DNA from: Lachnospiraceae bacterium
GTDB taxonomy: Bacteria; Bacillota; Clostridia; Lachnospirales; Lachnospiraceae
DNA: 33,150 bases
Direction: 5' to 3'
NCBI GenBank assembly: GCA_029006155.1
Contig: JAQXGF010000012.1
Location: forward strand, 1 to 33,150
Position 1 is the stretch's first letter, and the number at the start of each line of letters is the position of its first letter. Positions 5,359-18,041 of this stretch are shown piece by piece. The position numbers and the translations under genes are program-made. The notes under the pieces were generated by a model that was not told where the DNA came from, searched no databases, and worked only from the letters and a program-made list of their open reading frames with translations.

Positions 5359-5392
5359 GATTCGATTTTTGTTGAAAATCAGATATGAAAAA

Positions 5393-5439
5393 GAAGAGTG
5401 CTTCAATCATAGTTTTGTGGTTGGAGGACTCTTCTTTTT
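5393..5439 (+). terminator. Intrinsic terminator of the ribosome-biogenesis operon
   Basis: A 19-bp imperfect stem (5393-5411 with 5416-5434, three G-T pairs, one mismatch) has a 4-base loop and a TTCTTTTTA tail. It begins 34 bases after the stop of the SseB-like gene. The AAAAAGAAGAG/CTCTTCTTTTT shape recurs at 12344-12400. Confidence 0.88.
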
Positions 5440-5517
5440 ATATCTTCTATTTTCTTATATGTCGAAACTATTTTATAGATATTTTTGTATGAGACTACAA
5501 TAGTACTTGAAGAACAG

Positions 5518-5540
5518 TTTACGTAATCAAATTATGTAAA
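5518..5540. repeat. 23-bp palindromic motif, copy 1
   Basis: Arms TTTACGTAA (5518-5526) and TTATGTAAA (5532-5540) with a 5-base spacer. The arms pair with one G-T. Copies with the same 9-5-9 geometry are at 5596, 12267 and 17971. Confidence 0.75.
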
Positions 5541-5595
5541 TTAATATATATAACAATAACTTTTTCGATGATTTTATTCGTATTTCAAATATTAG

Positions 5596-5618
5596 TTTAC
5601 ATATCTAAATTATGTAAT
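5596..5618. repeat. 23-bp palindromic motif, copy 2 (degenerate ends)
   Basis: Arms TTTACATAT (5596-5604) and TTATGTAAT (5610-5618) with a 5-base spacer, 78 bases from copy 1. The core positions are kept, but the outer symmetry is weaker. Confidence 0.6.
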
Positions 5619-5655
5619 CCATTAAGTGAACTGTAAGATAAAATACTTTTCATAC

Positions 5656-5720
5656 AAAAAGAACCACTTAAACAAGCTTCCTCATAAATCGTGACAGGGA
5701 GACGAGGCTAAGTGGTTCTT
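5656..5720 (-). terminator. lexA terminator
   Basis: A perfect 12-bp stem pairs 5659-5670 (AAGAACCACTTA) with 5709-5720. Read on the - strand it is followed by TTTTTG. It lies about 85 bases beyond the lexA stop. The 38-base interior can fold further. Confidence 0.75.
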
Positions 5721-5803
5721 AAATAGTGTTCGTTTATAAATTTTATAAATATAGACAATATCAGTTATAGATATGTTAATTCTGTTTAGAATAGTCTGGC
5801 TTC

Positions 5804-6418
5804 TTAGAAAAACCGGAACACTCCGAATACCTTCCCCAGAATCTGGCAGTCATCTACGATGATCGGCTCCATCGTATCATTCTCCGGCTGGAGACGATAG
5901 TGACCGTTTTCTTTGTAATAAGTCTTTACGGTCGCAGAGTCCTCGATCAGTGCGACTACAATATCCCCATTGCGGGCCGTCGTCTGCTGCATGACAAGCA
6001 CACTGTCTCCGTCGAGAATCCCGGCATTAATCATGCTCTCACCCTTTACCTTGAGGATGAAAGACTGCTCGTTCGGCATGTACTCAGATGGGATCGGAAA
6101 GTAGCTGTCGATGTTCTGCTCGGCAAGAATCGGCTGGCCGGCTGCGACTGTGCCAACGACCGGGACATTGACCATCTCGCGGCGAAGCATATTAAAAGAT
6201 TCATCTAAGATCTCGATCGCACGCGGCTTCGTCGGGTCGCGTCGAATGTATCCATTTTTTTCCAGTGACTCCAGATGGGAGTGGACAGAAGACGTCGACT
6301 TTAATCCAACGGCCTGACAGATCTCCCGGACGGCTGGTGGAAAGCCACGCTCCAGAATTTCATCTTTTATATAATTCAGGATTTCTTCCTGCTTTTTCGT
6401 AATTGGTCTGTTTTCCAT
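5804..6418 (-). CDS. lexA: LexA SOS repressor
   Basis: This 204-residue repressor has an N-terminal winged helix-turn-helix (about 1-65, with [20 protein letters not shown]) and a C-terminal S24 self-cleaving domain. The Ala93-Gly94 cleavage bond is in [11 protein letters not shown], the nucleophile Ser128 in VKGESMI and the general base Lys165 in ATVKTYY. LexA blocks DNA-repair genes until RecA filaments trigger self-cleavage. The start at 6418 has GGAGG seven bases upstream. A possible ATG at 6436 lies before that site and would contain it. A LexA-type box overlaps its own -35 region, so it is probably autoregulated. Confidence 0.96.
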
Positions 6419-6447
6419 AGGATATCCTCCGTACATATGTTTTTATG

Positions 6448-6476
6448 AGTATAGCATAAAAAACACAAAAAAGCAA
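6448..6476 (-). promoter_or_regulatory. lexA promoter
   Basis: On the - strand, -35 TTGCTT (6471-6476) and -10 TATACT (6448-6453) are separated by 17 bases, giving a 5' leader of about 25 bases before the lexA ATG. Confidence 0.75.
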
Positions 6477-6488
6477 ACAAATGTTTTG
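6474..6488. promoter_or_regulatory. Putative LexA box
   Basis: CAAACAAATGTTTTG is a near-perfect dyad matching the Clostridia consensus GAACNNNNGTTT except for A at the first position. It overlaps the lexA -35 element, as expected for autorepression. It lies over 40 bases upstream of the divergent promoter. Confidence 0.65.
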
Positions 6489-6531
6489 TGATACTTTGAT
6501 AATTCTTAATAATTCTGTTCCTTTTGTTTCC

Positions 6532-6560
6532 TTGTAATCCGAAGAAGCGGGTGTTATAAT
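6532..6560 (+). promoter_or_regulatory. Promoter of the DUF1002 gene
   Basis: TTGTAA (6532-6537), a 17-base spacer and a perfect TATAAT (6555-6560), about 55 bases before the ATG at 6616. Confidence 0.75.
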
Positions 6561-6615
6561 GAGAAAGCGAAAACAAAAGCAGCAGAAATACTGTATTTGA
6601 AAGTGAGGATATTGT

Positions 6616-8433
6616 ATGAAAAGAAAACTGTTATCATTGATTATGAGCGCGATCTGCCTGACCGCAGCGATTCCGTCCACGCTTGTATTTGCTGATGGAC
6701 AGAAAGTCGTAACGCTCGGCGCAGACCTTTCCGAAGATCAGAAAAATGCGATCCTCCGCTACTTTGGCGTAGCCGGACAGAACATCCAGACGCTGACGAT
6801 CACGAACCAGGACGAGCGGAACCATCTTGGATCTTATGTGCCGCTTGAGCAGATCGGTACGCACACCTACAGTTGTGCACTTGTCTGCCCGACGACTTCC
6901 GGCGGTATTCAGGTAAAGACCGCTAACCTTTCCTGGGTCACCAGCAATATGATCGCATCGACCCTTTCGACTTCCGGTGTTGTGAACTGTGACGTACTGG
7001 CGGCGGCTCCGTTTGAAGTGTCCGGTACCGGCGCACTGACCGGAATCCTGATGGCGTATGAGTCCGCATCCGGTGAGCAGCTCGATGAGACGAAGAAGGA
7101 GATTGCGACACAGGAGATGATCACGACGACGACGATCGCAAATACGATCGGACAGCAGCAGGCGACCGAGATCGTAAATGACACAAAGATGCAGGTCATT
7201 CAGGGAAATCAGGTCAATCAGGAGACCACGAATGATATTGATGTCATCATTAATCAGGTCGCACAGGAGAAAAATATTTCTCTCAGCGATGAAGACCGTC
7301 AGCTGCTTCAGGATCTGCTCGAGGAGATCGCAGATCAGAATTATAATTATGACGATATGAAAGAGACGCTGGAGCGTGTGGAACAGAATGTAAATAATAA
7401 TATTGACGACTCACAGGTGATTGGATCCACGGATGATACGGCGCAGGATGCCGCTGCAAATACGGCACAGACGGAAACGCCTGAGACACTTGCCCCGGAC
7501 AGCATCCTGAAGAACACGGATGAATCCGCACTTGGTGATAATGTAAACTTCGACGCGACCGATTCTTCTGCACTGGATCAGACCGAAGCGCAGCAGACGG
7601 AAGCCACTCAGACTGAGACGACACCATCTGGTGAGTTTGAGATCACGACTTCTGACAATTATTCTGATTCGGAAGCACAGACCGAGGCCACAACTGAATC
7701 TCAGTCTGAGACGACAGGAGCGGAAAGTGGTGATCTTGTCACATCCGATATTGAGATGATCCCGCTCAGCGATTTCGTCCTTTCTCCGGTTACTTCAGAG
7801 GCTACGAATTATAAGGTATATCCGGCTGGCCTTCAGGAACTGACCGTAAGCTTTGAACGTAATGATATCGTCGCAGGTTCCGGTACCGTATCTGTATACA
7901 ATGCCGTCGATTCCTCGCTTGTAGAGACGGTAAATATGGATGATGAAAAGAAAGTGGCGATCTCACCTCTGGATGACGATGAACTCAACGATCTTGGCTG
8001 GACAGAGGGCTATAAGGCAGTTCTGACTCTTTCTGAGCCGCTGGCACAGAACGCGACCTACTTTGTCGCAATGTCGCAGGATGCATTCTCTACCGAAGAT
8101 GGAAGAGGCAGCTCAGAGGCCACACCGGACAGCTACACATGGATGTTCCAGACTTCTCCGTATGGATTTTCCATCACTCCGGCAGAAGATGGATACAAGG
8201 CGGGAACGACTGCGACGGCGACCATCCTCATGGACGGCAGTGACGCAGGATACGCGACGATCGAGAATGTCGATGAGAGCCTCCTTTCCTTTGACCAGAA
8301 CGAATTCTGGGCGACCGGTAATCTCACCGCTTCCTTCCTTGCAAGCGGCGAGACGACTTTCCAGGTAGCATTCTATGATGTGGCGGGCGGAAATCTGCTG
8401 TATACGATGGATTATAGTGTGGAGATTAACTAA
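6616..8433 (+). CDS. Secreted DUF1002 protein with acidic linker and C-terminal domain
   Basis: This 605-residue protein begins with a Sec signal peptide (KRK, hydrophobic core, cleavage probably after VFA at 26). The next part (about 27-270: KVVTLGADLSEDQKNAILRYFGV, then LTGILMAYESASG) matches the DUF1002/YpuA family of exported Firmicutes proteins of unknown function. A low-complexity linker rich in Thr, Glu, Gln and Ser (about 270-375) follows. The final 225 residues look like beta-rich, Ig-like modules (LQELTVSFERNDIVAGSGTVSV), an assignment made only from sequence texture. There is no LPXTG, SLH or transmembrane anchor at the C-terminus. It is a single gene with its own promoter, divergent from lexA and closed by a terminator. 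Confidence 0.8.
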   Translation: MKRKLLSLIMSAICLTAAIPSTLVFADGQKVVTLGADLSEDQKNAILRYFGVAGQNIQTLTITNQDERNHLGSYVPLEQIGTHTYSCALVCPTTSGGIQVKTANLSWVTSNMIASTLSTSGVVNCDVLAAAPFEVSGTGALTGILMAYESASGEQLDETKKEIATQEMITTTTIANTIGQQQATEIVNDTKMQVIQGNQVNQETTNDIDVIINQVAQEKNISLSDEDRQLLQDLLEEIADQNYNYDDMKETLERVEQNVNNNIDDSQVIGSTDDTAQDAAANTAQTETPETLAPDSILKNTDESALGDNVNFDATDSSALDQTEAQQTEATQTETTPSGEFEITTSDNYSDSEAQTEATTESQSETTGAESGDLVTSDIEMIPLSDFVLSPVTSEATNYKVYPAGLQELTVSFERNDIVAGSGTVSVYNAVDSSLVETVNMDDEKKVAISPLDDDELNDLGWTEGYKAVLTLSEPLAQNATYFVAMSQDAFSTEDGRGSSEATPDSYTWMFQTSPYGFSITPAEDGYKAGTTATATILMDGSDAGYATIENVDESLLSFDQNEFWATGNLTASFLASGETTFQVAFYDVAGGNLLYTMDYSVEIN

Positions 8434-8488
8434 GGGTATCTTGGCTGGATACCGAGGCTGATAACCGACAGAATAAACAAATAAGTAG

Positions 8489-8518
8489 AGGAGTGTGGTT
8501 TTTATCACACTCCTTTTT
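8489..8518 (+). terminator. Terminator of the DUF1002 gene
   Basis: Perfect 9-bp stem AGGAGTGTG (8489-8497) with CACACTCCT (8506-8514), 8-base loop, then TTTTT. Confidence 0.88.
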
Positions 8519-8521
8519 GTA

Positions 8522-8591
8522 AAGCGGATATTCGCAATCTATTTCTGCAGCTCATCTCTGCAGCTTTGCTGCGGGGTCCTGCTGCGGGGCC
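8522..8591. repeat. 70-bp hairpin-rich interspersed repeat, copy A
   Basis: This stretch is the same as 20283-20352 except for two adjacent bases (TT here, CC there). It contains small internal hairpins such as GCGGATATTCGC and GCAGCTTTGCTGC, and the repeated CTGCTGCGGGG or GCTGCGGGG. Another shared block, TAGCTTCGCTAC, follows in both copies, but here it is separated by about 15 extra bases. There is no reading frame with a ribosome binding site. Confidence 0.85.
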
Positions 8592-8625
8592 CCTGCTGAC
8601 GGGACTTAGCTTCGCTACTTGCTCA

Positions 8626-8642
8626 TTAACCGATACAAGTAA
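8626..8642 (+). repeat. TTAACC-CAAG motif, divergent copy
   Basis: TTAACCGATACAAGTAA differs at three positions from the TTAACCGAATCAAGCAA form at 16111. It lies in the sense direction about 190 bases beyond the DUF1002 gene. It is the weakest member of this family. Confidence 0.35.
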
Positions 8643-8666
8643 CAGGGTATTGACTCTCACGGTAAT

Positions 8667-8717
8667 AAAAAAATGCCAGCCCGGCGTGCTTATTTCCATC
8701 GCCTCAGGCTGGCATTT
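8667..8717 (-). terminator. Terminator of aspS-hicB
   Basis: Perfect 11-bp stem AAATGCCAGCC (8671-8681) with 8707-8717, plus an inner GGCG/CGCC. On the - strand a run of seven T follows. It lies 26 bases beyond the hicB-like stop. Confidence 0.85.
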
Positions 8718-8742
8718 CTCGTATCAATTATTTTCTATCTAC

Positions 8743-9018
8743 TTACTCATCCCATCCGTCGGTCAGGCGCATGATCGCCGAAATATTCCGGACAAAGTCG
8801 CCTTCCTGCAGGACGAGATCCTCCTTGTGTGAGATTGGCGGGAGATGGCCTTCAAACTCGGTCAGCTCCACATAGAGCCAGTTGTACATCGCATGGTAGG
8901 CATTGTCCAGACACTCGTTTAACGTGTCTCCTTCCGCCGCACAGTCCGTCAGATCTGGGAACGTAGCGGTGTAGCCTTTTTCCGTTGGATGAATGATTGC
9001 AGGATATGCAAATGTCAT
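8743..9018 (-). CDS. Solitary HicB-like antitoxin-fold protein
   Basis: This 91-residue protein matches the HicB-like antitoxin family. It has the N-terminal partial RNase H-like fold (FAYPAIIHPTEKGYTATFPDLTDCAAEGDTLNE) with the typical FPDL and GDT landmarks, then a short helical tail. No separate C-terminal DNA-binding domain is visible. HicB antitoxins normally neutralise the mRNA-cutting toxin HicA, encoded beside them. Here no HicA-sized gene is adjacent: upstream is aspS, 13 bases away, and downstream is a terminator. The AAAGGAG ribosome binding site overlaps the aspS stop codon, so the two genes are translationally linked. Function is unknown; it could be an orphan antitoxin or a domesticated regulator. 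Confidence 0.8.
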   Translation of the reverse strand: MTFAYPAIIHPTEKGYTATFPDLTDCAAEGDTLNECLDNAYHAMYNWLYVELTEFEGHLPPISHKEDLVLQEGDFVRNISAIMRLTDGWDE

Positions 9019-9031
9019 AGCCAGTGCTCCT

Positions 9032-10801
9032 TTATGCTTCTTCCTTCTTCGGAAGGTCCAGCTGAATGTGTACGTCGGAGAGCTGCTTCGGATCGACTGT
9101 AGACGGAGCGCCCATCATGACATCCTGTGCCGTCTTGTTCATCGGGAACGGGATGATCTCACGGATGCTGTCCTCACCGGCAAGCAGCATGACCATGCGG
9201 TCAACGCCCGGTGCGATACCAGCGTGTGGCGGAGCACCGTAACAGAATGCATTGTACATCGCCGGGAATTTTGCTTTTACGTCGTCCTCGCCAAGTCCTA
9301 CGAGCTGGAATGCCTTTACCATGATCTCCGGATCGTGTTTCCGGACAGCACCGGAAGAGAGCTCTACGCCGTTGCAGACCAGATCGTACTGATATGCGTA
9401 AATGTCGAGCGGATCTTTGTTCTCAAGTGCATCCAGCCCACCCTGCGGCATGGAAAACGGATTGTGACAGAACTCCAGCTCGCCGGATTCCTCACCGATC
9501 TCGTACATCGGGAAATCTACGATCCAGCAGAACTCGTAGCAATCGGTTCTCATATGGCCCTCAGAAGCAGCACCAAGGTATTTTCTGAGCACACCTGCGG
9601 TCTTCTGAGCCGCGAGCTTCTTGCCAGCGCATACGCCGACGAAATCGCCTGGCTTCAGACCAAGAGCAGCCTTTACATCCTCTGCGCGCTCCTGCAGGAA
9701 TTTTGCAATTCCACCGGTCAGTGCGCCATTTTCGTCTACCTTGAACCAGTAGCCCTTATTGCCAGCCTGTACTTCTACGTCAGCCATCAGTTTATCGATG
9801 ACTTTTCTCGTGCCCTTGAATCCGTCTACGACAACTGCCTTTACGACATTGCCCTCGAACGGTCCGAATCCGCAGTCAGCCATGCAGTCCGTCGCATCCT
9901 GAACGATTAGATCGATGCGCAGATCCGGCTTATCTGTGCCGTATTTCTCCATCGCATCGCGGTAGGAAATGCGGGTGAACGGGGCAGTAGAAGCCTTCTT
10001 ATAAGTACCAAACTTTTCAAATACCGGCGGGAGGACATCCTCAAGCACGGCAAATACGTCTTCCTGAGATGCAAATGCCATCTCCATATCGAGCTGATAG
10101 AACTCACCCGGAGAACGGTCTGCACGCGCATCCTCATCACGGAAGCACGGCGCGATCTGGAAATAACGGTCAAAACCGGAAGTCATCAGCAGCTGCTTGA
10201 ACTGCTGCGGAGCCTGCGGCAACGCATAGAACTTACCCGGATGATTTCTGGACGGAACAAGATAGTCACGTGCACCTTCCGGAGAAGAGCAGGTGAGGAT
10301 CGGAGTCGTGATCTCCAGGAATCCATGTTCCATCATGCTGCGGCGCAGCTCAGCAACGACGTTGCAGCGAAGTACGATTTTCTCCTTGACAGCCGGGTTG
10401 CGCAGGTCAAGGTAACGATACTTCAGACGTGTATTTTCATCGGCTTCCTTGGAACGGTTGATTTCAAACGGAAGCTCGTTGTAAATGCATTTTCCGAGAA
10501 CTTCGATTTTCTCCGGAACGACCTCGATTTCACCGGTCGGAAGATTCGGGTTCTTGCTGGAACGCTCCCGGACAACACCGGAGACGGAGAGTGTGGACTC
10601 TGTATTTACACCGGAAATCTGATCCATCATTTCCTCGGTCTCGATCACGATCTGCGTCGTGCCATAAAAGTCGCGCAGGATCAGGAAACCAAGATTTTTA
10701 CTTACTCTTCGTAAATTTTCATACCAGCCGACGAGCGTAACCGACTTTCCGGCATCTGCAAGCCGCAGCTCGTTACAGGTATGTGTTCTTGACTGTGTCA
10801 T
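9032..10801 (-). CDS. aspS: Aspartyl-tRNA synthetase, bacterial type
   Basis: This 589-residue class II synthetase charges tRNA-Asp. It has the N-terminal OB fold (about 1-110), then class II motif 2 (FRDEDARADRSPGEFYQLD, about 218-236) and motif 3 (GIAPGVDRMVMLLAG, about 528-542). The insertion at about 300-410 is the GAD domain of bacterial-type enzymes, and SPEGARDYLVPSR is also characteristic. Length is normal. Whether it also charges tRNA-Asn cannot be told by eye. It has a good ribosome binding site (AAGGATGG) and its own promoter. No T-box leader was seen in the short upstream region. The HicB-like gene follows in the same transcript. Confidence 0.96.
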   Translation of the reverse strand: MTQSRTHTCNELRLADAGKSVTLVGWYENLRRVSKNLGFLILRDFYGTTQIVIETEEMMDQISGVNTESTLSVSGVVRERSSKNPNLPTGEIEVVPEKIEVLGKCIYNELPFEINRSKEADENTRLKYRYLDLRNPAVKEKIVLRCNVVAELRRSMMEHGFLEITTPILTCSSPEGARDYLVPSRNHPGKFYALPQAPQQFKQLLMTSGFDRYFQIAPCFRDEDARADRSPGEFYQLDMEMAFASQEDVFAVLEDVLPPVFEKFGTYKKASTAPFTRISYRDAMEKYGTDKPDLRIDLIVQDATDCMADCGFGPFEGNVVKAVVVDGFKGTRKVIDKLMADVEVQAGNKGYWFKVDENGALTGGIAKFLQERAEDVKAALGLKPGDFVGVCAGKKLAAQKTAGVLRKYLGAASEGHMRTDCYEFCWIVDFPMYEIGEESGELEFCHNPFSMPQGGLDALENKDPLDIYAYQYDLVCNGVELSSGAVRKHDPEIMVKAFQLVGLGEDDVKAKFPAMYNAFCYGAPPHAGIAPGVDRMVMLLAGEDSIREIIPFPMNKTAQDVMMGAPSTVDPKQLSDVHIQLDLPKKEEA

Positions 10802-10858
10802 AGTCTACCATCCTTTTCTTTGTAGATTATCGTAAAAAAAAGTCTTTTCGAATTTATT

Positions 10859-10887
10859 ATTATACTCTGTTTACCGGGGGATTGCAA
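10859..10887 (-). promoter_or_regulatory. aspS promoter
   Basis: On the - strand, TTGCAA (10882-10887), 17 bases, and TATAAT (10859-10864), about 58 bases before the aspS start. Confidence 0.75.
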
Positions 10888-10941
10888 GGCGCAACAACCG
10901 TTAATTCCGATTTTTAAAGAACTGCGTATTTATTTGGGGAA

Positions 10942-10961
10942 CTGCAGGTCATGACATGCAG
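10942..10961. promoter_or_regulatory. Inverted repeat between aspS and recombinase promoters
   Basis: CTGCAGGTCATGACATGCAG is a 20-bp near-perfect dyad with a TCATGA centre, midway between two divergent promoters. It could be an operator or a protein-binding site. No binding protein is suggested by the sequence. Confidence 0.4.
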
Positions 10962-11002
10962 TGAGGAGTTGGCATATTAATTACGTGGTTTTGAGAAAAT
11001 CC

Positions 11003-11031
11003 TTGCCAGAACGTGCGAAAAATAGTATAAT
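11003..11031 (+). promoter_or_regulatory. Recombinase promoter
   Basis: TTGCCA (11003-11008), 17-base spacer, TATAAT (11026-11031), about 65 bases before the ATG at 11096. Confidence 0.75.
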
Positions 11032-11095
11032 ACATCTATACGACAAACACATGTTTTTCAAATAGATCAGTTAAAAAGAAAGGATTCTGCTTATT

Positions 11096-12157
11096 ATGGA
11101 GAAAAATCAGACTTATCACGATCAGGTAACCATCGAGCAAACTCAGAAGCTCCGCGAGGTCCTGAAAACGCTGCCTGCATTTACCCGCGATTATTTCCGT
11201 GCTATGGAGCCGACGACTTCGGCGCGCACAAGGATTTCTTATGCTTATGACATTCGGGTTTTCTTTCATTTCCTGTTATCCGAAAATCCGGCTTTTAAAG
11301 ACAAAACGATGGCGGATCTTACCGTTGACGTGCTGGATCAGCTTCAGGCTGTCGATATTGAAGAATTTCAGGAATATCTCAAAGTCTATGACTCTGCCGA
11401 GGATAATCGCCTGCAGACCAACGGGGAACGCGGATTAAAGCGCAAAATGTCCGCTCTCCGGAGTTTTTATAACTATTTTTACAAACGTGAAATGATAAAG
11501 ACAAATCCTGTCCTGCTGGTGGATATGCCAAAGCTTCATGACAAGGCGATCATTCGTCTGGATCCGGATGAAACAGCCGAGCTTCTGGATTATATTGAGC
11601 ACGCGGGTGATTCGCTGACCGGTCAGAAAAAGGTCTATTATGAAAAAACCAGGTTGCGCGACCTTGCGATCGTCACCTTGCTGCTCGGCACGGGAATCCG
11701 TGTGTCAGAATGTGTGGGGCTGGATGTGGAAGATGTAGATTTTAAAAATGATGCGATCCGGGTCGTACGCAAGGGCGGATCAGAAATGATGATTTACTTT
11801 GGAGATGAAGTCGAGCAGGCGCTGCTCAATTATCTGGAAGACCGGGCAGCGATCACACCGGTGGCCGGGCATGAGCATGCTCTCTTCTACTCTACTCAGC
11901 GGAAACGGATCGGCGTGCAGGCAGTCGAAAATATGGTAAAAAAATATGCCCGGGAGATCACGACGACCAAAAAGATCACCCCGCATAAGCTGCGAAGCAC
12001 CTACGGTACGACACTTTATCAGGAAACCGGGGATATTTACCTCGTAGCCGACGTGCTCGGGCACAAGGATGTCAACACGACAAAGAAACACTATGCGGCG
12101 ATGGATGACAGCCGACGAAGGAAGGCGGCTACGGCTGTAAAATTACGGAAGGCATGA
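11096..12157 (+). CDS. Xer-type tyrosine recombinase
   Basis: This 353-residue protein has a SAM-like core-binding N-terminal half (about 20-155) and a catalytic C-terminal half with the full active-site set: Arg202 (GTGIRVSE), Lys226 (VRKGGSE), His297 and Arg300 (PHKLRSTYG), His323 (GHKDVNTT) and nucleophile Tyr333 (KKHYAAMD). It is about 50 residues longer than typical XerC/XerD. It has its own promoter and stands alone between housekeeping genes with no phage or element genes nearby. A housekeeping chromosome-dimer resolvase is therefore more likely than an integrase, but a domesticated integrase cannot be excluded. No dif-like site was recognised in the window. Confidence 0.85.
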   Translation: MEKNQTYHDQVTIEQTQKLREVLKTLPAFTRDYFRAMEPTTSARTRISYAYDIRVFFHFLLSENPAFKDKTMADLTVDVLDQLQAVDIEEFQEYLKVYDSAEDNRLQTNGERGLKRKMSALRSFYNYFYKREMIKTNPVLLVDMPKLHDKAIIRLDPDETAELLDYIEHAGDSLTGQKKVYYEKTRLRDLAIVTLLLGTGIRVSECVGLDVEDVDFKNDAIRVVRKGGSEMMIYFGDEVEQALLNYLEDRAAITPVAGHEHALFYSTQRKRIGVQAVENMVKKYAREITTTKKITPHKLRSTYGTTLYQETGDIYLVADVLGHKDVNTTKKHYAAMDDSRRRKAATAVKLRKA

Positions 12158-12343
12158 TTCAAGATAATAAATAAAAATCATCAGCCATGTCTGTTACATG
12201 ACACAATCAACATTTTTACATTTTATCTTATTATGCAATATAAAATGTAAGTTGTACATGATAAATTTTACATAATAACATTACGTAAACTAATCTAATA
12301 AAAAAATATATAACAGTTAAACAGGTAAGAAAATAAATGACAT
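12158..12343. other. AT-rich convergent intergenic stretch
   Basis: No gene is seen. The segment includes a 9-bp inverted repeat (ACATTTTAT with ATAAAATGT, about 12218-12250) and one copy of the 23-bp palindrome at 12267. Composition resembles the gaps at 5440-5655 and 17940-18040, both also between convergent genes. Confidence 0.55.
12267..12289. repeat. 23-bp palindromic motif, copy 3
   Basis: Arms TTTACATAA (12267-12275) and TTACGTAAA (12281-12289), 5-base spacer TAACA. The arms pair with one A-C mismatch. Same geometry as 5518 and 17971. Confidence 0.75.
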
Positions 12344-12400
12344 AAAAAGAAGAGTTCTTCAACCACGAAATTACTATGATGGAATCACTCTTCTTTTTTA
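12344..12400. terminator. Bidirectional terminator between recombinase and isomerase
   Basis: AAAAAGAAGAGT (12344-12355) pairs with ACTCTTCTTTTTT (from 12387), flanked by an A-run and a T-run, so it can work in both directions. The interior is only partly paired. It closely resembles the terminator at 5393-5439. Confidence 0.7.
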
Positions 12401-12401
12401 T

Positions 12402-12416
12402 GCTTGATTCGGTTAA
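12402..12416 (-). repeat. TTAACCGAATCAAGC motif, isomerase 3' end
   Basis: On the - strand TTAACCGAATCAAGC overlaps the isomerase stop codon. Exact copies are at 16111-16125 and 20440-20454. Confidence 0.7.
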
Positions 12417-13657
12417 ATCTGTTTTCCTTCCTTCACCGCCGGTGCAATCGAAAGTGCCGGTGTGTAATATGGGATCAGGGTCGCCTGCGTCGCATGGTAC
12501 AGGTCAGATTTTCCAGGCCATACGGTACCGAGCAGCTCGTTGTGCTGATCCAGCTGGTGGAACCAGGAACCGTGTACATGATCCAGCACCTTCTCATCCA
12601 GATACTGCATGAACTGTGCATAGTCATCGGCATAGCGCTGATCGCCAGTCACATGATACAGAACCGAAGACGTATTGATTGCCTCGGCAAGCGTCCAGTG
12701 CATACGATCGTGTACGACAGGTTTGCCATTCCAGTCCGTTGTATAGACGATACCAGGCGCACAGTCTGCATTCCAAGCATCCGTTACCGCGCGATTGTAC
12801 AGATTCTGAGAAACGGTCAGGTATTCTTTTGCTGCATCCGGATCATTCGGATAGGTCGAAAGTGCCCACTGTGCGATCAGGCGTGCCCACTCGATACCGT
12901 GTCCCGGCGTTGCGCCATATGGCTTGAACGGATCGTCCGGCTTGTCCTTATTGCAGTCCAGCTCCGCTACCCATTCCTTTGTAAAGTGCTCCGGAATCCG
13001 CCACTGATTAGCAGCTGCCCAGCCTTTTACATGATCAATGATGCGTCCGGCACGTACGCGGTACTTCTCCTCTCCTGTCACGTCTGCGGCTGCGAGAAAT
13101 GCTTCTACGGTATGCATGTTTGCATTCAACCCACGGTAATCATCCAGTACGGTAAATTCCGTGTTCCACGTATCACAGGATAATCCTTCTTCCTCATTCC
13201 AGAACCGAAGATCATACAGGGCCAGTGCCTCGTCGAGCAGCTCTTTTGCGCCCGGAAGTCCTGCCAGTGTCGCAGACGATGCGGCAAGAATGACAAATGC
13301 ATGCGCATAGCACTGCTTGTTCGGAAGAATGCCACCGTCAGCAGTCAATCCTGCATACCAGCCACCATGCTCCTTGTCATGCAGTTCTCCTTTCAGTCCC
13401 TTCAATCCTGCCTCTGCCAGCTCTTTGCTCCCCGGGTGTCCCAGAAACATGCCGAGGCTGTAGACATGTACCATACGGCTTGTGATCCATGTCTCACGGC
13501 TGCGGTCCTTCCACGGTGTCCCATCGTCGCCAAGATAATACGAACTTCCGCCCGGAGACGGAAACTGATGGCCAAAAGAAAGCAGGCTCTCGCGTACTTC
13601 CTTCAAAAAAGCGCGGTTCTCATCTGTGTCAATGAGGTATTTCTCCTGTAATTTCAT
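12413..13657 (-). CDS. AGE-family sugar isomerase, YihS-like
   Basis: This 414-residue (alpha/alpha)6-barrel protein matches AGE-family aldose-ketose isomerases of the YihS/mannose isomerase type along its length. Landmarks are WITSRMVHVYS (Arg61), GGWYAG (98-103), YRGLNANMHTVEAF (His182), EHF (223-225), GATPGHGIEW (His253), GIVYTTDWNGKPVV (302-315) and GKSDLYH (His388). Three His and one Arg fall at the spacing of the catalytic set in YihS. Such enzymes interconvert mannose, fructose and glucose, or sulfoquinovose and sulfofructose. The gene stands alone without sulfo-sugar genes nearby, and the YihS GKQD is GKSD here, so mannose/fructose isomerisation is the safer guess. Its promoter is near consensus. 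Confidence 0.82.
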   Translation of the reverse strand: MKLQEKYLIDTDENRAFLKEVRESLLSFGHQFPSPGGSSYYLGDDGTPWKDRSRETWITSRMVHVYSLGMFLGHPGSKELAEAGLKGLKGELHDKEHGGWYAGLTADGGILPNKQCYAHAFVILAASSATLAGLPGAKELLDEALALYDLRFWNEEEGLSCDTWNTEFTVLDDYRGLNANMHTVEAFLAAADVTGEEKYRVRAGRIIDHVKGWAAANQWRIPEHFTKEWVAELDCNKDKPDDPFKPYGATPGHGIEWARLIAQWALSTYPNDPDAAKEYLTVSQNLYNRAVTDAWNADCAPGIVYTTDWNGKPVVHDRMHWTLAEAINTSSVLYHVTGDQRYADDYAQFMQYLDEKVLDHVHGSWFHQLDQHNELLGTVWPGKSDLYHATQATLIPYYTPALSIAPAVKEGKQI

Positions 13658-13732
13658 ACTGTGTAAAGCCTCCCTTTTCGTTTATGTACACTCGCAAAGC
13701 AGTTCCCTGCTGCAAGGAGCTACATTTCCTTT

Positions 13733-13761
13733 ATTGTACGTCCAGGCGGTCTCATAGTCAA
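13733..13761 (-). promoter_or_regulatory. Promoter of the YihS-like isomerase
   Basis: On the - strand, TTGACT (13756-13761), 17 bases, and TACAAT (13733-13738), about 75 bases before the ATG. The leader holds a small GCAGCA/TGCTTTGC-type hairpin. Confidence 0.75.
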
Positions 13762-13795
13762 TTAGAAGTTCAAATTCCTTTAAAATTCAGACAGG

Positions 13796-15166
13796 TTACA
13801 TCAATCCCTGAATCAGAATGATCAAAATCAGAATCGGAAGGATAAACTGGAAGTACGGCTTCAACTTTCTGGAAAGGCGAATACCGGAACCGGTATTGCA
13901 CTCCTCATAATAGCGATCAAAGCCCCAGCCAAATTTCGTCACACAGAACAGCAGGTAAATCAGAGAGCCGCCCGGAAGCAGCAGGTTGCTGACGATAAAA
14001 TCCTCGCTGTCGAGCACATCTCTTCCACCGATCAGGTGCAGATCGCTCCAGATATTGTAGCCAAGCACACACGGCAGGCTCGCGATCAGAATGATAATGC
14101 CGTTGATGATCGCTGCTTTTTTCCGGCTAAGCGGCTTCTTTTCCGTTCCGAACATGTCGATGCTGAAGGAAATGATATTTTCAAATACGGCCATAACCGT
14201 ACTGAAGCTCGCAAATGTCATGAACAGGAAGAACAGTGCACCCCAGATACGTCCACCTGCCATGTTGATAAAGACATTCGGCAGTGTCACGAAAATGAGG
14301 GACGGGCCGGCATCCGGCTGAATTCCGAAGGAAAAGCAGGCCGGGAAAATGATCAGACCGGACATGATCGCCACGAAGGTATCCAGTGCGCAGATCCGGA
14401 TGGCTTCTCCGGTCAGCGTATGATCTTTGCTCATGTAGCTTCCGAAAATCTCCATCGCCGCAATACCGAGGCTCAGCGTAAAGAACGACTGATTCATCGC
14501 CGCAGACACGACGGTTCCGATACCGACATCCGATGCACGCTGCAGATCCGGCACCAGATAGAACTGAATCCCTGCTCCGCCGCCGGATAAGGTCAGGCTG
14601 TGAATGACGAGCACGATGATCAGAAGGAGCAGCGCCGACATCATGTATTTACTGATCTTCTCGACACCCTTCTGCAGTCCCATGCTGCACACCAGAAATC
14701 CGAGCACAACGGTGACTGCCATCCAGATGCCCATTTCCTTCGGGGATGCGAGCAGATCGCCAAAAACGCCGCCAACTGCTTCCGCATCCATACCTGAATG
14801 AAAGGTTCCGGTGACGAATCGGAAAAAGTAGCTCAGCATCCATCCGGAGACCGTGGTGTAATACATCATGAGCATATAGCAGCCAAAGATGCAGAACCAT
14901 CCGTGAATGTGCCATTTGCTTCCCGGCTTCTCCAGTGCTTTATAACCAAGCACTGCGCTCTTGCGGCTGGCTCTTCCGACCGCCAGTTCCATCGTCAGTA
15001 CCGGCACACCCATACACAGCAGGAATATCAGATACAGGATGACAAAAATGCCGCCTCCATTCTGTCCTGCCACGAACGGAAAACGCCAGACGTTTCCGAT
15101 ACCGATGGCACAGCCTGCGGTTACGAGCAGGAAGCCAAGCCTTGATTGAAAGCTTTCTCGTTTCAT
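13796..15166 (-). CDS. Sodium:neurotransmitter symporter (NSS) family transporter
   Basis: This 456-residue integral membrane protein belongs to the SNF/NSS family. TM1 carries the signature CAIGIGNVWRFPFVAGQNGGG, the unwound Na+ and substrate-binding helix; GVPVLTMELAVGR (end of TM2) and SFFTLSLGIAAMEIFGSY (TM6) follow. Bacterial members such as LeuT and MhsT move amino acids with Na+. The hydrophobic pattern suggests 11-12 helices. The substrate cannot be deduced. The start at 15166 (MKRESFQSR) is preferred over a GTG at 15187 because AGAGGAG lies before it. It ends 138 bases upstream of the isomerase start, with a promoter between, so the two are probably separate units. Confidence 0.9.
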   Translation of the reverse strand: MKRESFQSRLGFLLVTAGCAIGIGNVWRFPFVAGQNGGGIFVILYLIFLLCMGVPVLTMELAVGRASRKSAVLGYKALEKPGSKWHIHGWFCIFGCYMLMMYYTTVSGWMLSYFFRFVTGTFHSGMDAEAVGGVFGDLLASPKEMGIWMAVTVVLGFLVCSMGLQKGVEKISKYMMSALLLLIIVLVIHSLTLSGGGAGIQFYLVPDLQRASDVGIGTVVSAAMNQSFFTLSLGIAAMEIFGSYMSKDHTLTGEAIRICALDTFVAIMSGLIIFPACFSFGIQPDAGPSLIFVTLPNVFINMAGGRIWGALFFLFMTFASFSTVMAVFENIISFSIDMFGTEKKPLSRKKAAIINGIIILIASLPCVLGYNIWSDLHLIGGRDVLDSEDFIVSNLLLPGGSLIYLLFCVTKFGWGFDRYYEECNTGSGIRLSRKLKPYFQFILPILILIILIQGLM

Positions 15167-15212
15167 GTTACATAATTCTCCTCTCACACACTTTGTTTTG
15201 TATCGCTTCCGC

Positions 15213-15247
15213 AGGTGACGGATCTCCTTACTCTGTCAGGCACACCT
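15213..15247 (-). other. Leader hairpin of the NSS transporter
   Basis: On the - strand TGACAGA and TCCGTCA pair (7 bp with one G-T) around a GTAAGGAGA loop, with an outer AGG/CCT. It lies about 45-80 bases before the start. No known riboswitch class was recognised. Confidence 0.35.
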
Positions 15248-15381
15248 TTGTAAAAGTTGCCGGAGTGAAAATCGATTGCGGGAGCACATAATGAAAAGTT
15301 TAACGCAAGAGCCACCGATAGTCAAACAAAATCGGTCAAAACAACAGTAAAATCGTTAAAAAAATACAAAAATTTAACACG

Positions 15382-15410
15382 TTTCCATTTGTTTGATAAT
15401 ATGCTAGAAT
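15382..15410 (+). promoter_or_regulatory. Promoter of the flavoprotein gene
   Basis: TTTCCA (15382-15387), 17 bases, TAGAAT (15405-15410), about 50 bases before the ATG. Confidence 0.5.
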
Positions 15411-15460
15411 AAATATGCCATTCTACACATGATACACAATAAAAGGAAGGAGCTGTACTT

Positions 15461-16078
15461 ATGAAAGTATTATTAGTAAACGGAAGCCCGCATGCATCCG
15501 GAAGCACCTATACGGCGCTGCACGAGATGGAGCAGGTATTTCAGGCAAACGGCATTGAAACAGAGATGCTGCATGTCGGAAACAAAGACATCCGCGGTTG
15601 TGTAGCCTGCGGTGCCTGTTCCAAACTCGGCAAATGTGCATTTTCTGATATGGTAAACGAAGCCGCACCGAAATTCGAGGAAGCGGACGGTCTTGTCGTC
15701 GGAAGCCCGGTCTACTACGCGTCTGCCAATGCGACGCTCGTCGCGTTTCTGGACCGTCTCTTCTACAGCACTCATTTTGATAAGACGATGAAAGTCGGCG
15801 CAGCGGTCGTATCAGCCCGTCGTGGTGGACTGTCCGCATCCTTCGACGAATTGAACAAATATTTTACGATCGCAGGCATGCCGGTCGCATCCAGCCAGTA
15901 CTGGAACAGCATTCACGGCAACAACGCGGCTGAGGCAGCCCAGGATCTGGAAGGACTTCAGATCATGCGTACCCTCGCCCGGAATATGACCTTCCTGATG
16001 AAGAGTATCCAGCTCGGCAAGGAGGCATTCGGACTCCCGGAAAAAGAGCCGCGCGTCGGCACGAACTTTATCCGCTGA
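15461..16078 (+). CDS. NADPH-dependent FMN reductase / iron-sulfur flavoprotein
   Basis: This 205-residue flavodoxin-fold protein starts with MKVLLVNGSPHASGSTYTAL, the FMN phosphate-binding loop of the family. A compact cysteine cluster at 47-59 (CVACGACSKLGKC) has the CX2CX2CX5C spacing of the iron-sulfur flavoprotein (Isf) group, which holds a 4Fe-4S cluster beside FMN. GSPVYYASANATLVAFLDRLFY (about 85-106) is the second FMN-contact region. Such proteins pass electrons from ferredoxin or NAD(P)H to O2, peroxide or unknown acceptors. The gene is monocistronic with GGAAGGAG before its ATG. The electron donor and acceptor are unknown. A plain NAD(P)H:quinone or azoreductase role is less likely given the four cysteines. 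Confidence 0.82.
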   Translation: MKVLLVNGSPHASGSTYTALHEMEQVFQANGIETEMLHVGNKDIRGCVACGACSKLGKCAFSDMVNEAAPKFEEADGLVVGSPVYYASANATLVAFLDRLFYSTHFDKTMKVGAAVVSARRGGLSASFDELNKYFTIAGMPVASSQYWNSIHGNNAAEAAQDLEGLQIMRTLARNMTFLMKSIQLGKEAFGLPEKEPRVGTNFIR

Positions 16079-16110
16079 TGCACGATACAGAGAACATAGT
16101 GTAAAGCAGC

Positions 16111-16165
16111 TTAACCGAATCAAGCAAGCCACTCCTGATAAGTTGCTTGACTTTGGCAAAGTATC
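16111..16165 (+). repeat. TTAACCGAATCAAGC motif within a 3' hairpin
   Basis: The motif occupies 16111-16125. TCAAGCAA just inside it pairs with TTGCTTGA (about 16143-16150), so the 3' region can form a hairpin with partial outer pairing of CCGAA and TTTGG. No U-run follows, so it is a weak terminator at best. It begins 33 bases after the flavoprotein stop. Confidence 0.55.
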
Positions 16166-16191
16166 CTTAAGGTGTGTCTGAAAATACCTTC

Positions 16192-16220
16192 TGGTCATTT
16201 AGACAATATCATGCTATAAT
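16192..16220 (+). promoter_or_regulatory. Promoter of the ABC-F gene
   Basis: A perfect TATAAT (16215-16220) has only a weak -35 (TGGTCA, 17-base spacer). The 90-base leader contains CCCCG/CGGGG arms around 16236-16263, a potential attenuator stem of modest strength. Confidence 0.5.
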
Positions 16221-16313
16221 GAAAAAAACGCGATACCCCGCTTCTGTAAAAGGAATTCGGGGCATTCGTTTTGTATAGGATAAGAATCTGACACACAAGA
16301 GGAGTTAAACTGC

Positions 16314-17864
16314 ATGATTTTAAATGTAAAGAATCTGAGCCACGGTTTTGGTGACCGTGCGATTTTTGAGAATGTCTCTTTCCGCCTGCTAAAGGGCGAA
16401 CATATCGGACTGATCGGTGCGAACGGCGAAGGAAAGTCCACCTTTATGAATATCATCACCGGAAAGCTGATGCCGGATGAAGGAACCGTTGAGTGGGCGA
16501 AAAATGTCCGTGTCGGCTACCTCGACCAGCATACCGTACTGGAACCGGGGATGACGATCCGGGAAGTGCTGAAGACGGCCTTTTCCTTTTTATTTGATCT
16601 GGAAGCGTCCATGAATGAAATGTTCAATCAGATGGCAGAGGCCGATGATGTAGAAATGGCGCGACTGCTCGACGAGACTGCGACGATTCAGGAGCTGCTC
16701 GATCATCACGACTTTTACCTGATCGACACAAAGGTCGAGGAAGTCGGCCGTGCGCTCGGACTGACGGACATCGGCCTGGACCGGGATGTGACGGAGCTCT
16801 CCGGCGGACAGCGTACCAAGGTGCTCATGGCAAAGTTGCTGCTCGAAAAGCCGGATATTCTGCTGCTCGACGAGCCGACCAACTATCTGGATGAGGGACA
16901 CATCGAGTGGCTGAAACGCTATCTGAATGACTATGAAAATGCATTTATCCTGATCTCGCATGACATCCCGTTTCTGAACAGCGTCGTAAATCTGATCTAT
17001 CATATGGAAAACAAGTCGCTCGACCGCTATCCTGGTGATTATGATCATTTCCGCGAGGTCTATGAAATGAAAAAGTCCCAGCTCGAAGCGGCCTACAACC
17101 GCCAGCAGCAGGAAATCTCCCAGCTGAAAGACTTTGTGGCCCGCAACAAAGCACGCGTCGCGACCAGGAATATGGCAATGGCACGCCAGAAAAAGCTCGA
17201 CAAGATGGATGTGATTGAGCTCGGCCGGGAAAAACCGAAACCGGAATTTACGTTCCGCACAGCACGCACTTCCGGCAAGCTGATCTTCGAGACGGAGGAT
17301 CTAGTGATCGGATATGACGAGCCACTCTCCCGCCCGCTGAACATCCGGATGGAGCGCGGAGAAAAGATCGCGCTCGTCGGTGCAAACGGAATCGGAAAGA
17401 CGACACTCTTAAAGAGTATCCTCGGACTGACGCCGCCGTTTTCCGGTAAGGTGCATCGGGGAGACTATCAGGAGATCGGCTATTTTGAACAGGAATCGGA
17501 TCAGAAAAATACGACGACCTGTATCGAAGAGATCTGGAAAATTTTCCCGTCCTGGACGCAGTACGAGGTGCGCGCGGCACTCGCCAAGTGCGGTCTGACG
17601 ACACAGCATATCGAGAGCCAGGTGCGGGTACTCTCCGGCGGTGAGCAGGCCAAAGTACGTCTGTGCAAGATCATGAACACGGAGACGAATATTCTCCTGC
17701 TCGACGAGCCGACCAACCATCTGGACGTCGATGCCAAGACTGAGCTGAAGCGCGCTTTACAGGAATACAAGGGCAGCATTCTTCTGATCTGTCACGAGCC
17801 GGAGTTTTATCAGGATGTCGTGACCAAGGTGTGGAACTGCCAGGAGTGGTCGACGCGCATCTAG
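16314..17864 (+). CDS. ABC-F family ATPase, YfmM-like
   Basis: This 516-residue soluble protein has two ABC domains and no membrane segment. Domain 1 has Walker A GANGEGKST (35-43), signature LSGGQ (about 162) and LLLDEPTNYLD. Domain 2 has Walker A GANGIGKTT (about 356) and LSGGEQAKV with LLLDEPTNHLD. The linker at about 240-320 (FVARNKARVATRNMAMARQKKLDKMD) is the ABC-F P-site tRNA interaction motif region. ABC-F proteins bind the ribosomal E site; some rescue stalled ribosomes and others protect from antibiotics. The N-terminus (LSHGFGDRAIFENVSFRLLKGEH) closely resembles B. subtilis YfmM as I remember it, a housekeeping member. A resistance role is possible but unsupported. Confidence 0.88.
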   Translation: MILNVKNLSHGFGDRAIFENVSFRLLKGEHIGLIGANGEGKSTFMNIITGKLMPDEGTVEWAKNVRVGYLDQHTVLEPGMTIREVLKTAFSFLFDLEASMNEMFNQMAEADDVEMARLLDETATIQELLDHHDFYLIDTKVEEVGRALGLTDIGLDRDVTELSGGQRTKVLMAKLLLEKPDILLLDEPTNYLDEGHIEWLKRYLNDYENAFILISHDIPFLNSVVNLIYHMENKSLDRYPGDYDHFREVYEMKKSQLEAAYNRQQQEISQLKDFVARNKARVATRNMAMARQKKLDKMDVIELGREKPKPEFTFRTARTSGKLIFETEDLVIGYDEPLSRPLNIRMERGEKIALVGANGIGKTTLLKSILGLTPPFSGKVHRGDYQEIGYFEQESDQKNTTTCIEEIWKIFPSWTQYEVRAALAKCGLTTQHIESQVRVLSGGEQAKVRLCKIMNTETNILLLDEPTNHLDVDAKTELKRALQEYKGSILLICHEPEFYQDVVTKVWNCQEWSTRI

Positions 17865-17878
17865 GAGGGCTGAATTGT

Positions 17879-17935
17879 GAACCGGTTATGCAACGATATT
17901 CAGAAAAGATTGTTGCATGTCCGGTTCTTTCTATT
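17879..17935 (+). terminator. Terminator of the ABC-F gene
   Basis: A long stem pairs 17879-17897 with 17909-17927 (GAACCGG with CCGGTTC, ATGCAAC with GTTGCAT), followed by TTTCTATTTTTCT. Confidence 0.85.
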
Positions 17936-17970
17936 TTTCTATATATTCTATTTTATCACTGTGTAATATG

Positions 17971-17993
17971 TTTACATAATTTAATTACGTAAA
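17971..17993. repeat. 23-bp palindromic motif, copy 4
   Basis: Arms TTTACATAA (17971-17979) and TTACGTAAA (17985-17993), 5-base spacer TTTAA. It lies between the convergent ABC-F and histidine-kinase terminators. Confidence 0.75.
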
Positions 17994-18041
17994 TCACATT
18001 TATATTTCTATGTCCGTGATGTTTTTTAATATATCTATACT

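What the first reader, a model, noticed from the sequence alone, without database searches (positions are those of the whole stretch)
5518..17993. A 23-bp palindrome found only in convergent intergenic gaps
The motif TTTACRTAA, 5 nt, TTAYGTAAA occurs at 5518-5540, 5596-5618 (degenerate), 12267-12289 and 17971-17993. All four copies share exact 9-5-9 geometry with a variable spacer, the hallmark of a dimeric protein site rather than a copied sequence. Every copy sits between the 3' ends of two convergent genes, in three of the four convergent gaps in this window, and always in an unusually AT-rich stretch bounded by terminators. That is an odd place for a promoter operator. It could be a nucleoid-organising or supercoil-domain site, a replication/segregation mark, or a protein-assisted transcription barrier.
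Basis: partly seen in the sequence, partly recalled or inferred. Interest (0 to 1): 0.72.

Follow-up and report, generated by a model that had tools for sequence, protein, structure and literature searches.

The report
Candidate chromosome-dimer resolution sites at terminus
The repeated palindrome is very probably the recombination site (a dif-like site) that a Xer-type enzyme encoded beside it uses to separate joined daughter chromosomes where replication ends, in a large family of gut bacteria in which the usual dif sequence was hardly found.

Summary
The four palindromes are real; at up to 2 mismatches they are the only ones in the 3.32-Mb draft genome. The full site is AGTTTACRTAA-N5-TTAYGTAAACT; its arm equals the right arm of B. 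subtilis dif, 11 of 11. The window is a replication terminus: genes run + on the left and − on the right, and cumulative GC skew peaks at 8498. Between the sites lies a 353-aa XerS-like tyrosine recombinase (11096-12157) with its catalytic residues intact.

The recombinase is found in 362 of 396 genomes of the family and lies opposite dnaA in 20 of 20 genomes examined. In 33 of 41 same-genus loci (window included) a site lies near it; 48 of 50 hits with 18/22 or more arm bases have spacer 5. In one genome with recombinase and sites 70 kb apart, the sites are the ones near the skew switch.

Best explanation: an unconventional Xer/dif system with a symmetric, 5-bp-centred, often multi-copy dif. 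Convergent gaps are a by-product of the replichore junction: congener sites also lie in tandem and divergent gaps. Not shown: binding, recombination, and whether XerD takes part.

The parts
5516..5542 (.). dif-like site A1, AGTTTACGTAA/TCAAA/TTATGTAAATT, 20 of 22 arm bases
5594..5620 (.). dif-like site A2 (degenerate), AGTTTACATAT/CTAAA/TTATGTAATCC, 19 of 22 arm bases; starts 78 bp after A1
12265..12291 (.). dif-like site B, ATTTTACATAA/TAACA/TTACGTAAACT, 107 bp beyond the recombinase stop codon; inverted duplicate of A1 with another centre
17969..17995 (.). dif-like site C, TGTTTACATAA/TTTAA/TTACGTAAATC, 18 of 22 arm bases
11096..12157 (+). 353-aa XerS-like tyrosine recombinase; R202, K226, H297, R300, H323, Y333 invariant in the 16 aligned sequences
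5377..5497 (+). terminator-like stem and AT-rich flank, one half of an inverted duplication next to site A1
12291..12409 (-). inverted copy of 5377-5497 next to site B
5804..6436 (-). lexA, frequent neighbour of the sites and the recombinase in the relatives examined
1001..2293 (+). obgE, in the left-replichore operon that ends at site A1/A2

Best explanation
The palindromes are dif-type crossover sites of an unconventional Xer system, placed at the replication terminus. Two recombinase protomers bind the two near-identical 11-bp arms; the 5-bp centre is the free strand-exchange (overlap) region. When homologous recombination has joined two sister chromosomes into a dimer, the recombinase pairs the sister copies of a site and resolves the dimer. 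The likely enzyme is the 353-aa XerS-like tyrosine recombinase encoded between the sites. Shown here: site sequence, fixed spacing, terminus position, linkage to the recombinase, its conservation across the family, an intact catalytic set. Inferred: binding, recombination, which Xer protein acts, and that several copies per terminus are active.
For: Arm TTATGTAAACT equals the right arm of B. subtilis dif as printed in PMC3025954 (passage). Fixed spacing: in 41 same-genus recombinase regions, hits with 18 or more of 22 arm bases number 48 at spacer 5, 2 at spacer 0, none at spacers 1-4 and 6-12; in 64 regions outside the genus 25 of 34 such hits have spacer 5 and 4 have spacer 6. Arms conserved, centre free: 27 distinct centres in 50 sites. 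Terminus: recombinase at 0.455-0.547 of the chromosome from dnaA in 20 of 20 genomes examined; exact palindromes in 34 complete or nearly complete genomes: 4 sites in 3 genomes, at 0.475-0.550. Site to skew maximum: 12 and 14 kb in G241, where the recombinase is 57 kb from it; 2 and 20 kb in G075; 14.5 kb in G233. Congener sites lie a median 2.0 kb from the gene-strand switch against 5.8 kb for random positions (42 sites; regions centred on the recombinase, which favours this). Linkage: 33 of 41 regions hold a site; in 18 of 41 one lies within 125 bp after the end of the recombinase match, at up to 3 mismatches. Recombinase in 362 of 396 family genomes. Canonical dif core without mismatch in 1 of 64 genomes. 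A filamentous-phage-like element lies next to a perfect site beside the recombinase.
Against: 8 of 41 same-genus regions and 36 of 64 other regions show no site with 17 or more of 22 arm bases at spacers 5 or 6; 15 of the 20 complete-genome regions have none at spacer 5. Cognate sites there are unknown, diverged or farther off. 13 of 41 have two or more sites, odd for dif, usually single; centres within a genome are not kept different (4 of 23 pairs alike, 1.0 expected; 3 of the 4 from one genome). Of 6 one-mismatch sites in complete genomes 3 lie away from the terminus. At 2 mismatches the 9-5-9 pattern is only moderately above its control in the genus (95 against 55 places in 47 genomes, some coding); at 3 mismatches the longer pattern is below control (162 against 261). 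In G233 the recombinase is nearer the skew maximum than the site, and the strand switch is unclear. A separate XerD exists. XerS model: 211.8 bits against a cut-off of 267. Left attachment site of the phage not found. No biochemical data.
Confidence: 0.77

Rival explanations
1. The site is dif, but XerD acts there, alone as a homotetramer or paired with the 353-aa protein as a divergent XerC. (Overlaps with the best explanation: it shares the dif reading.)
For: XerD equivalog over cut-off in the own genome (G000:C88) and in 12 of 21 genomes; 0 of 21 have an XerC over cut-off, though only 2 of 14 control genomes reach that cut-off either, so this is weak. The arms equal the right arm of B. subtilis dif, taken as the XerD arm from recall.
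Against: The site is linked to the 353-aa gene, not to xerD, which lies on another contig; near-perfect symmetry suits one enzyme; [quoted passage not shown]
Confidence: 0.3
2. Binding-only terminus mark: a MatP- or RTP-like protein binds the palindromes to organise the terminus or stop forks; the recombinase neighbourhood is coincidental.
For: Several copies per terminus, in tandem in some congeners at 39-59 bp; sites up to 70 kb from the recombinase.
Against: Arms match a known Xer arm; close linkage to a Xer-type gene in 18 of 41 regions; symmetric sites give no fork polarity (established knowledge). I made no dedicated search for such a binding protein.
Confidence: 0.1
3. Terminator or REP-type hairpin between convergent genes.
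For: 14 of 50 congener sites have 3 bp or more of extra perfect stem (1.7% of random positions); L083, L091 and L101 look like terminators by eye.
Against: Terminus-bound; fixed 5-bp loop with conserved arms; 24 of 50 have no extension; 25 of 50 lie in tandem or divergent gaps.
Confidence: 0.06
4. Attachment-site scars of Xer-exploiting elements (IMEX), so copies mark past integrations rather than housekeeping sites.
For: Filamentous-phage-like element about 560 bp from the site and recombinase in L279, L280 and G526; 14 sibling genomes match only from the recombinase start.
Against: Genes between the window sites look ordinary chromosomal; centres differ between the window copies, whereas att copies should share the overlap.
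Confidence: 0.07

Closest known systems
XerS/difSL (streptococci, lactococci)
   Same: One recombinase of similar size (356 aa) genetically linked to its site near the terminus (PMC5357621 section 12 and passages; PMC2731167 passages); XerS is the best NCBIfam hit.
   Different: difSL is 31 bp with an 11-bp centre and arms TTTTCTTGAAA/TTTCCGAAAA (PMC5357621 section 12); here 27 bp, 5-bp centre, other arms, often several copies; XerS cut-off not reached.
XerL/dif (Legionellales)
   Same: Single recombinase; dif recognised by dyad symmetry, low GC, terminus position, varying flanking genes and a mobile element (PMC9765430 passages).
   Different: Its arms show no homology to known Xer motifs according to that paper; here the arms equal a B. 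subtilis dif arm.
XerH/difH (epsilonproteobacteria)
   Same: Single recombinase of 354-362 aa with site near its gene (PMC5357621 passages); XerH structures are among the fold matches.
   Different: Sequence similarity is weak (5jjv, E 3.4e-9); XerA (5hxy, 3.4e-21) and XerD (1a0p, 4.7e-20) are closer among solved structures.
XerCD/dif (B. subtilis, E. coli)
   Same: Arm TTATGTAAACT is the right arm of B. subtilis dif (PMC3025954 passage).
   Different: Canonical dif is asymmetric 11-6-11; here symmetric 11-5-11 with a variable centre and often more than one copy; no XerC over cut-off in 21 genomes (a strict cut-off).

Membership tests
dif (chromosome dimer resolution site) | lies at the replication terminus / GC-skew switch | tested here: met
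   three of six one-mismatch sites in complete genomes lie elsewhere
dif (chromosome dimer resolution site) | two inverted Xer-binding arms around a short centre | tested here: met
   11-5-11, arm identical to the right arm of B. subtilis dif; binding itself not tested
dif (chromosome dimer resolution site) | 6-8 bp centre, 28-bp length | tested here: not met
   spacer 5 in 48 of 50 hits of 18/22 or more in the genus; G396 has 6-bp versions
dif (chromosome dimer resolution site) | one site per chromosome | tested here: not met
   4 in the own genome; two or more in 13 of 41 regions
dif (chromosome dimer resolution site) | recombined by a Xer protein in vivo | not testable with these tools
   needs experiment
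XerS (NF003462) | score over the curated cut-off of 267 bits | tested here: not met
   211.8 bits
XerS (NF003462) | gene adjacent to its dif | tested here: met
   18 of 41 regions within 125 bp after the recombinase match at up to 3 mismatches; farther off or not seen in the rest
Xer/simple tyrosine recombinases | catalytic R-K-HxxR-H-Y set (set from recall) | tested here: met
   all invariant in 16 aligned sequences; Pfam PF00589 119.1 bits
XerC / XerD equivalogs | score over TIGR02224 / TIGR02225 cut-offs | tested here: not met
   173.6 of 335.15 and 157.3 of 329.6 bits
IMEX (elements exploiting Xer) | element flanked on both sides by dif-like sites | tested here: inconclusive
   site found on the recombinase side, none on the other

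The most novel reading that the evidence does not exclude
The terminus of these bacteria is a poly-dif terminus: several symmetric sites with free 5-bp centres are used at once, each recombining only with its own sister copy where centres differ (19 of 23 within-genome pairs do, though no more than chance predicts), so that one Xer enzyme gives redundant dimer resolution over more than 10 kb without deleting the genes (aspS, lexA) in between.
Probability: 0.18. Interest if true: 0.78.

Novelty: new variant of a known kind. Interest (0 to 1): 0.6.

Why it matters
Lachnospiraceae are a dominant gut family (established knowledge), yet the searches made showed no paper describing a dif/Xer system for them. 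A short testable site plus a linked recombinase would say how these bacteria resolve chromosome dimers, give a marker of the terminus in draft genomes, and a possible integration site for phages and tools. Its symmetric arms, 5-bp centre and several copies depart from textbook dif.

Tried and rejected
Recurrent TTTACAGAAATGATTTATGTAAA in congeners looked like a second conserved site; it is coding sequence of a conserved gene (of corrinoid/iron-sulfur-protein type, name from recall). Canonical dif core: 25 of 64 genomes have scattered matches at up to 1 mismatch, with control matches of similar order; only G396 has it without mismatch. Idea that centres within a genome are kept different: 4 of 23 pairs alike against 1.0 expected, not supported. 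Idea that genes near the sites are mobile modules: in the five congener loci looked at they are ordinary genes, e.g. thiamine genes F37-F41 (names from recall). Phage left attachment site: none found. Flank-homology screen: its '***' marks arise because masked N stretches match each other; only the window pair 5516/12265 in inverted orientation stands well above shuffles, as in the unmasked. Wider pattern search at 3 mismatches in 42 genomes: 162 places against 261 for the reversed control, list cut, so used only for leads. The strand-switch test uses mechanical ORF calls on regions centred on the recombinase. AlphaFold model: mean pLDDT 69.9, poor C-terminal part, so the fold search only confirms the tyrosine-recombinase fold. 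Genomes lacking the recombinase were not studied further. Spacers at 17/22 arm bases also show 12 hits at 0, 10 at 10 and 4 at 9 besides 50 at 5, which I ascribe to each arm being nearly palindromic itself.
Full report
OBSERVATION. The motif is present at the stated coordinates (4 matches, mean 0.01 in shuffles). In the whole draft assembly the four are the only places at up to 2 mismatches (the window is the whole contig C12); the reversed-pattern control then gives 0 in this genome. At 3 mismatches 3 further places appear, against 11 for the control. All four lie between convergent genes, in 3 of 4 such gaps. Two copies, 5516 and 12265, belong to an inverted duplication of about 145-165 bp that includes a terminator-like stem; their arms agree at 21 of 22 bases and their centres do not.

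SURROUNDINGS. On the left the genes run + (obgE and its operon, up to 5358). From 18092 to the end they run −. Between, strands alternate. Cumulative GC skew in the window peaks at 8498. I read this as a replication terminus. At 11096-12157 lies a 353-aa tyrosine recombinase: Pfam Phage_integrase, 119.1 bits; best NCBIfam model XerS at 211.8 bits, below its cut-off of 267; R202, K226, H297, R300, H323 and Y333 invariant in 16 aligned sequences. It is found essentially full-length in 41 of 47 same-genus genomes (the six others are 65-91% complete) and at E of 1e-90 or better in 362 of 396 genomes of the family (genomes at least 95% complete, drawn evenly). A named scan (best 80 of 420 loci kept) gives mostly Lachnospiraceae titles, e.g. 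Parablautia, Blautia, Mediterraneibacter, Hominisplanchenecus, Diplocloster, some only 'Clostridiales' or 'Eubacteriales' and one 'Oscillospiraceae'; that the unnamed family is Lachnospiraceae is my inference from these. The own genome also has an XerD over cut-off (12 of 21 genomes over, 4 of 14 controls). XerC is over cut-off in 0 of 21 genomes, but in only 2 of 14 controls too, so the test is weak.

SITES IN RELATIVES. I took 41 recombinase regions (40 congeners and the window), many about 20 kb, others cut short by contig ends. 33 of 41 hold at least one site with 17 or more of 22 arm bases at spacer 5, 13 hold two or more, 50 sites in all. With 18 or more arm bases the counts are 48 at spacer 5, 2 at spacer 0, and none at spacers 1-4 and 6-12; in 64 regions outside the genus 25 of 34 such hits have spacer 5 and 4 have spacer 6. 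Arms are conserved and centres are free (27 kinds in 50). The arm TTATGTAAACT is identical to the right arm of B. subtilis dif, ACTTCCTAGAATATATATTATGTAAACT (PMC3025954, passage seen). In 18 of 41 regions a copy lies within 125 bp after the end of the recombinase match, two of them with 3 mismatches. A common order is obgE..sseB>, lexA<, DUF1002>, recombinase>, site, then −-strand genes. In 5 of the 40 regions (L315, L317, L320, L324, L325) the site lies between the end of the obgE operon and lexA, where the window has its pair 5516/5594. No site was recognised in 8 of 41 same-genus and 36 of 64 other regions.

GENOME-WIDE BACKGROUND. In 47 same-genus genomes the 9-5-9 pattern at up to 2 mismatches has 95 places against 55 for the reversed control (summed from its table), and some of the 95 are coding. 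At up to 1 mismatch in 34 complete or nearly complete genomes there are 10 places against 2. So single weak matches mean little; the exact and near-exact ones carry the argument.

TERMINUS TEST. In the 19 single-contig genomes whose recombinase coordinates were visible in the cut list, plus one genome of two contigs (G373), the recombinase lies at 0.455-0.547 of the chromosome from dnaA, mean deviation 0.019. Of the 10 palindromes at up to 1 mismatch (7 of 34 genomes), the 4 exact ones (3 genomes) lie at 0.475-0.550; of the 6 with one mismatch 3 lie at 0.47-0.56 and 3 do not (0.66, 0.95, 0.97) and may be chance (fractions worked out by me from the listed positions). In G241 the recombinase is about 70 kb from two perfect sites; the skew maximum (1,147,731, within 200 kb fetched) is 12-14 kb from the sites and 57 kb from the recombinase, and long ORFs switch strand near 1,150,000; five weaker hits (17-18 of 22, spacers 5 and 6) also occur in those 200 kb. 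In G075 one site is 2.3 kb from the skew maximum, a second 20 kb, the recombinase 4-5 kb. In G233 the site is 14.5 kb and the recombinase 3-4 kb from it, and the strand switch is unclear (80 kb fetched). So the sites keep to the terminus even where the gene is far off, within some 20 kb of the skew switch in the three genomes looked at.

WHY CONVERGENT GAPS. The replichore junction is where + and − genes meet. Congener sites lie in 21 convergent, 13 tandem and 12 divergent gaps, 2 inside mechanical ORFs and 2 at edges. Median distance to the strand switch is 2.0 kb against 5.8 kb for random positions (42 sites in regions of 12 kb or more, 30 of 42 within 3 kb); the regions are centred on the recombinase, which helps this result.

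SECOND ROLE. 14 of 50 sites extend by 3 bp or more into further perfect stem, against 1.7% of random positions; three (L083, L091, L101) look to me like intrinsic terminators. Some copies may therefore double as terminators. The window copies do not extend.

MOBILE ELEMENTS. The 27-bp pattern hits one IMG/VR contig, L279: a filamentous-phage-like element (G2P-type replication protein over its Pfam cut-off; Zot-like ATPase just under it), then after about 560 bp a perfect site, then a 61%-identical recombinase. L280 and the genome G526 carry the same arrangement with 21 of 22 arm bases. Of 17 genomes of that genus, 15 match the queried stretch; 14 of these match only from the recombinase start. 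No site was found at the other end of the element, so use of the site by the phage is suggestive only.

MECHANISM. Conserved arms, a free centre of fixed length, terminus position and linkage to a Xer-type enzyme with a complete catalytic set are together the signature of a tyrosine-recombinase crossover site used for chromosome dimer resolution. Similar criteria were used for XerL/dif in Legionellales (passages of PMC9765430). Binding and recombination are inferred. Which Xer protein acts is open, because an XerD is present and both arms look like the B. subtilis right arm. By sequence the recombinase is closest to XerA and XerD among solved structures.

NOVELTY. Searches of the open library (listings) showed no paper describing a dif/Xer system in Lachnospiraceae. 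PMC3025954 (passages) reports dif predictions for 97 Firmicutes from a B. subtilis seed; the terms Lachnospir, Blautia, Roseburia, phytofermentans and rectale do not occur in its main text, though its supplement was not seen. PMC10061712 on inoviruses of Enterocloster, perhaps the genus of L279 (my guess), holds none of the terms dif, Xer, recombinase, integrase, attachment site, direct repeat as whole words. Subscription papers and preprints were not searchable. I file it as a new variant of a known kind: it works like single-recombinase dif systems, but fails the 6-bp-centre, single-copy and XerS cut-off tests.

Noticed in passing
window 5377-5542 and 12265-12409: Inverted duplication of about 145-165 bp (terminator-like stem, flank, palindrome) enclosing lexA, DUF1002, aspS and the recombinase; recombination between the two copies could invert that segment.
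   Followed up: partly
L218 positions 1366 and 9520 (G396): A canonical-looking 28-bp dif (ATTTCACATAA/TATATA/TTATGTAAAGT) and a second site with a 6-bp centre about 120 bp after the recombinase: a possible intermediate between classical dif and the 5-bp form.
   Followed up: partly
L081, L089, L079, L102, L087, L071, L072: Tandem sites 39-59 bp apart (up to three) with mostly different centres.
   Followed up: partly
L279, L280, and G526 C5 about 191300-198700: Filamentous-phage-like element beside the site and the recombinase; another Zot-like phage gene lies near the recombinase in L353.
   Followed up: partly
window 25920-27464: ABC transporter reading frame ends in an odd tail, as if frame-shifted (indel or assembly error); read from the translation.
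   Followed up: no
G233 C1 1989336-1990389: Recombinase homolog matches in two overlapping pieces, perhaps frame-shifted, although an exact site is present 18 kb away.
   Followed up: no
obgE-lexA-recombinase neighbourhood in the loci: obgE operon, lexA and the recombinase stay together near the terminus in many of the genomes mapped, in differing relative orientations.
   Followed up: partly
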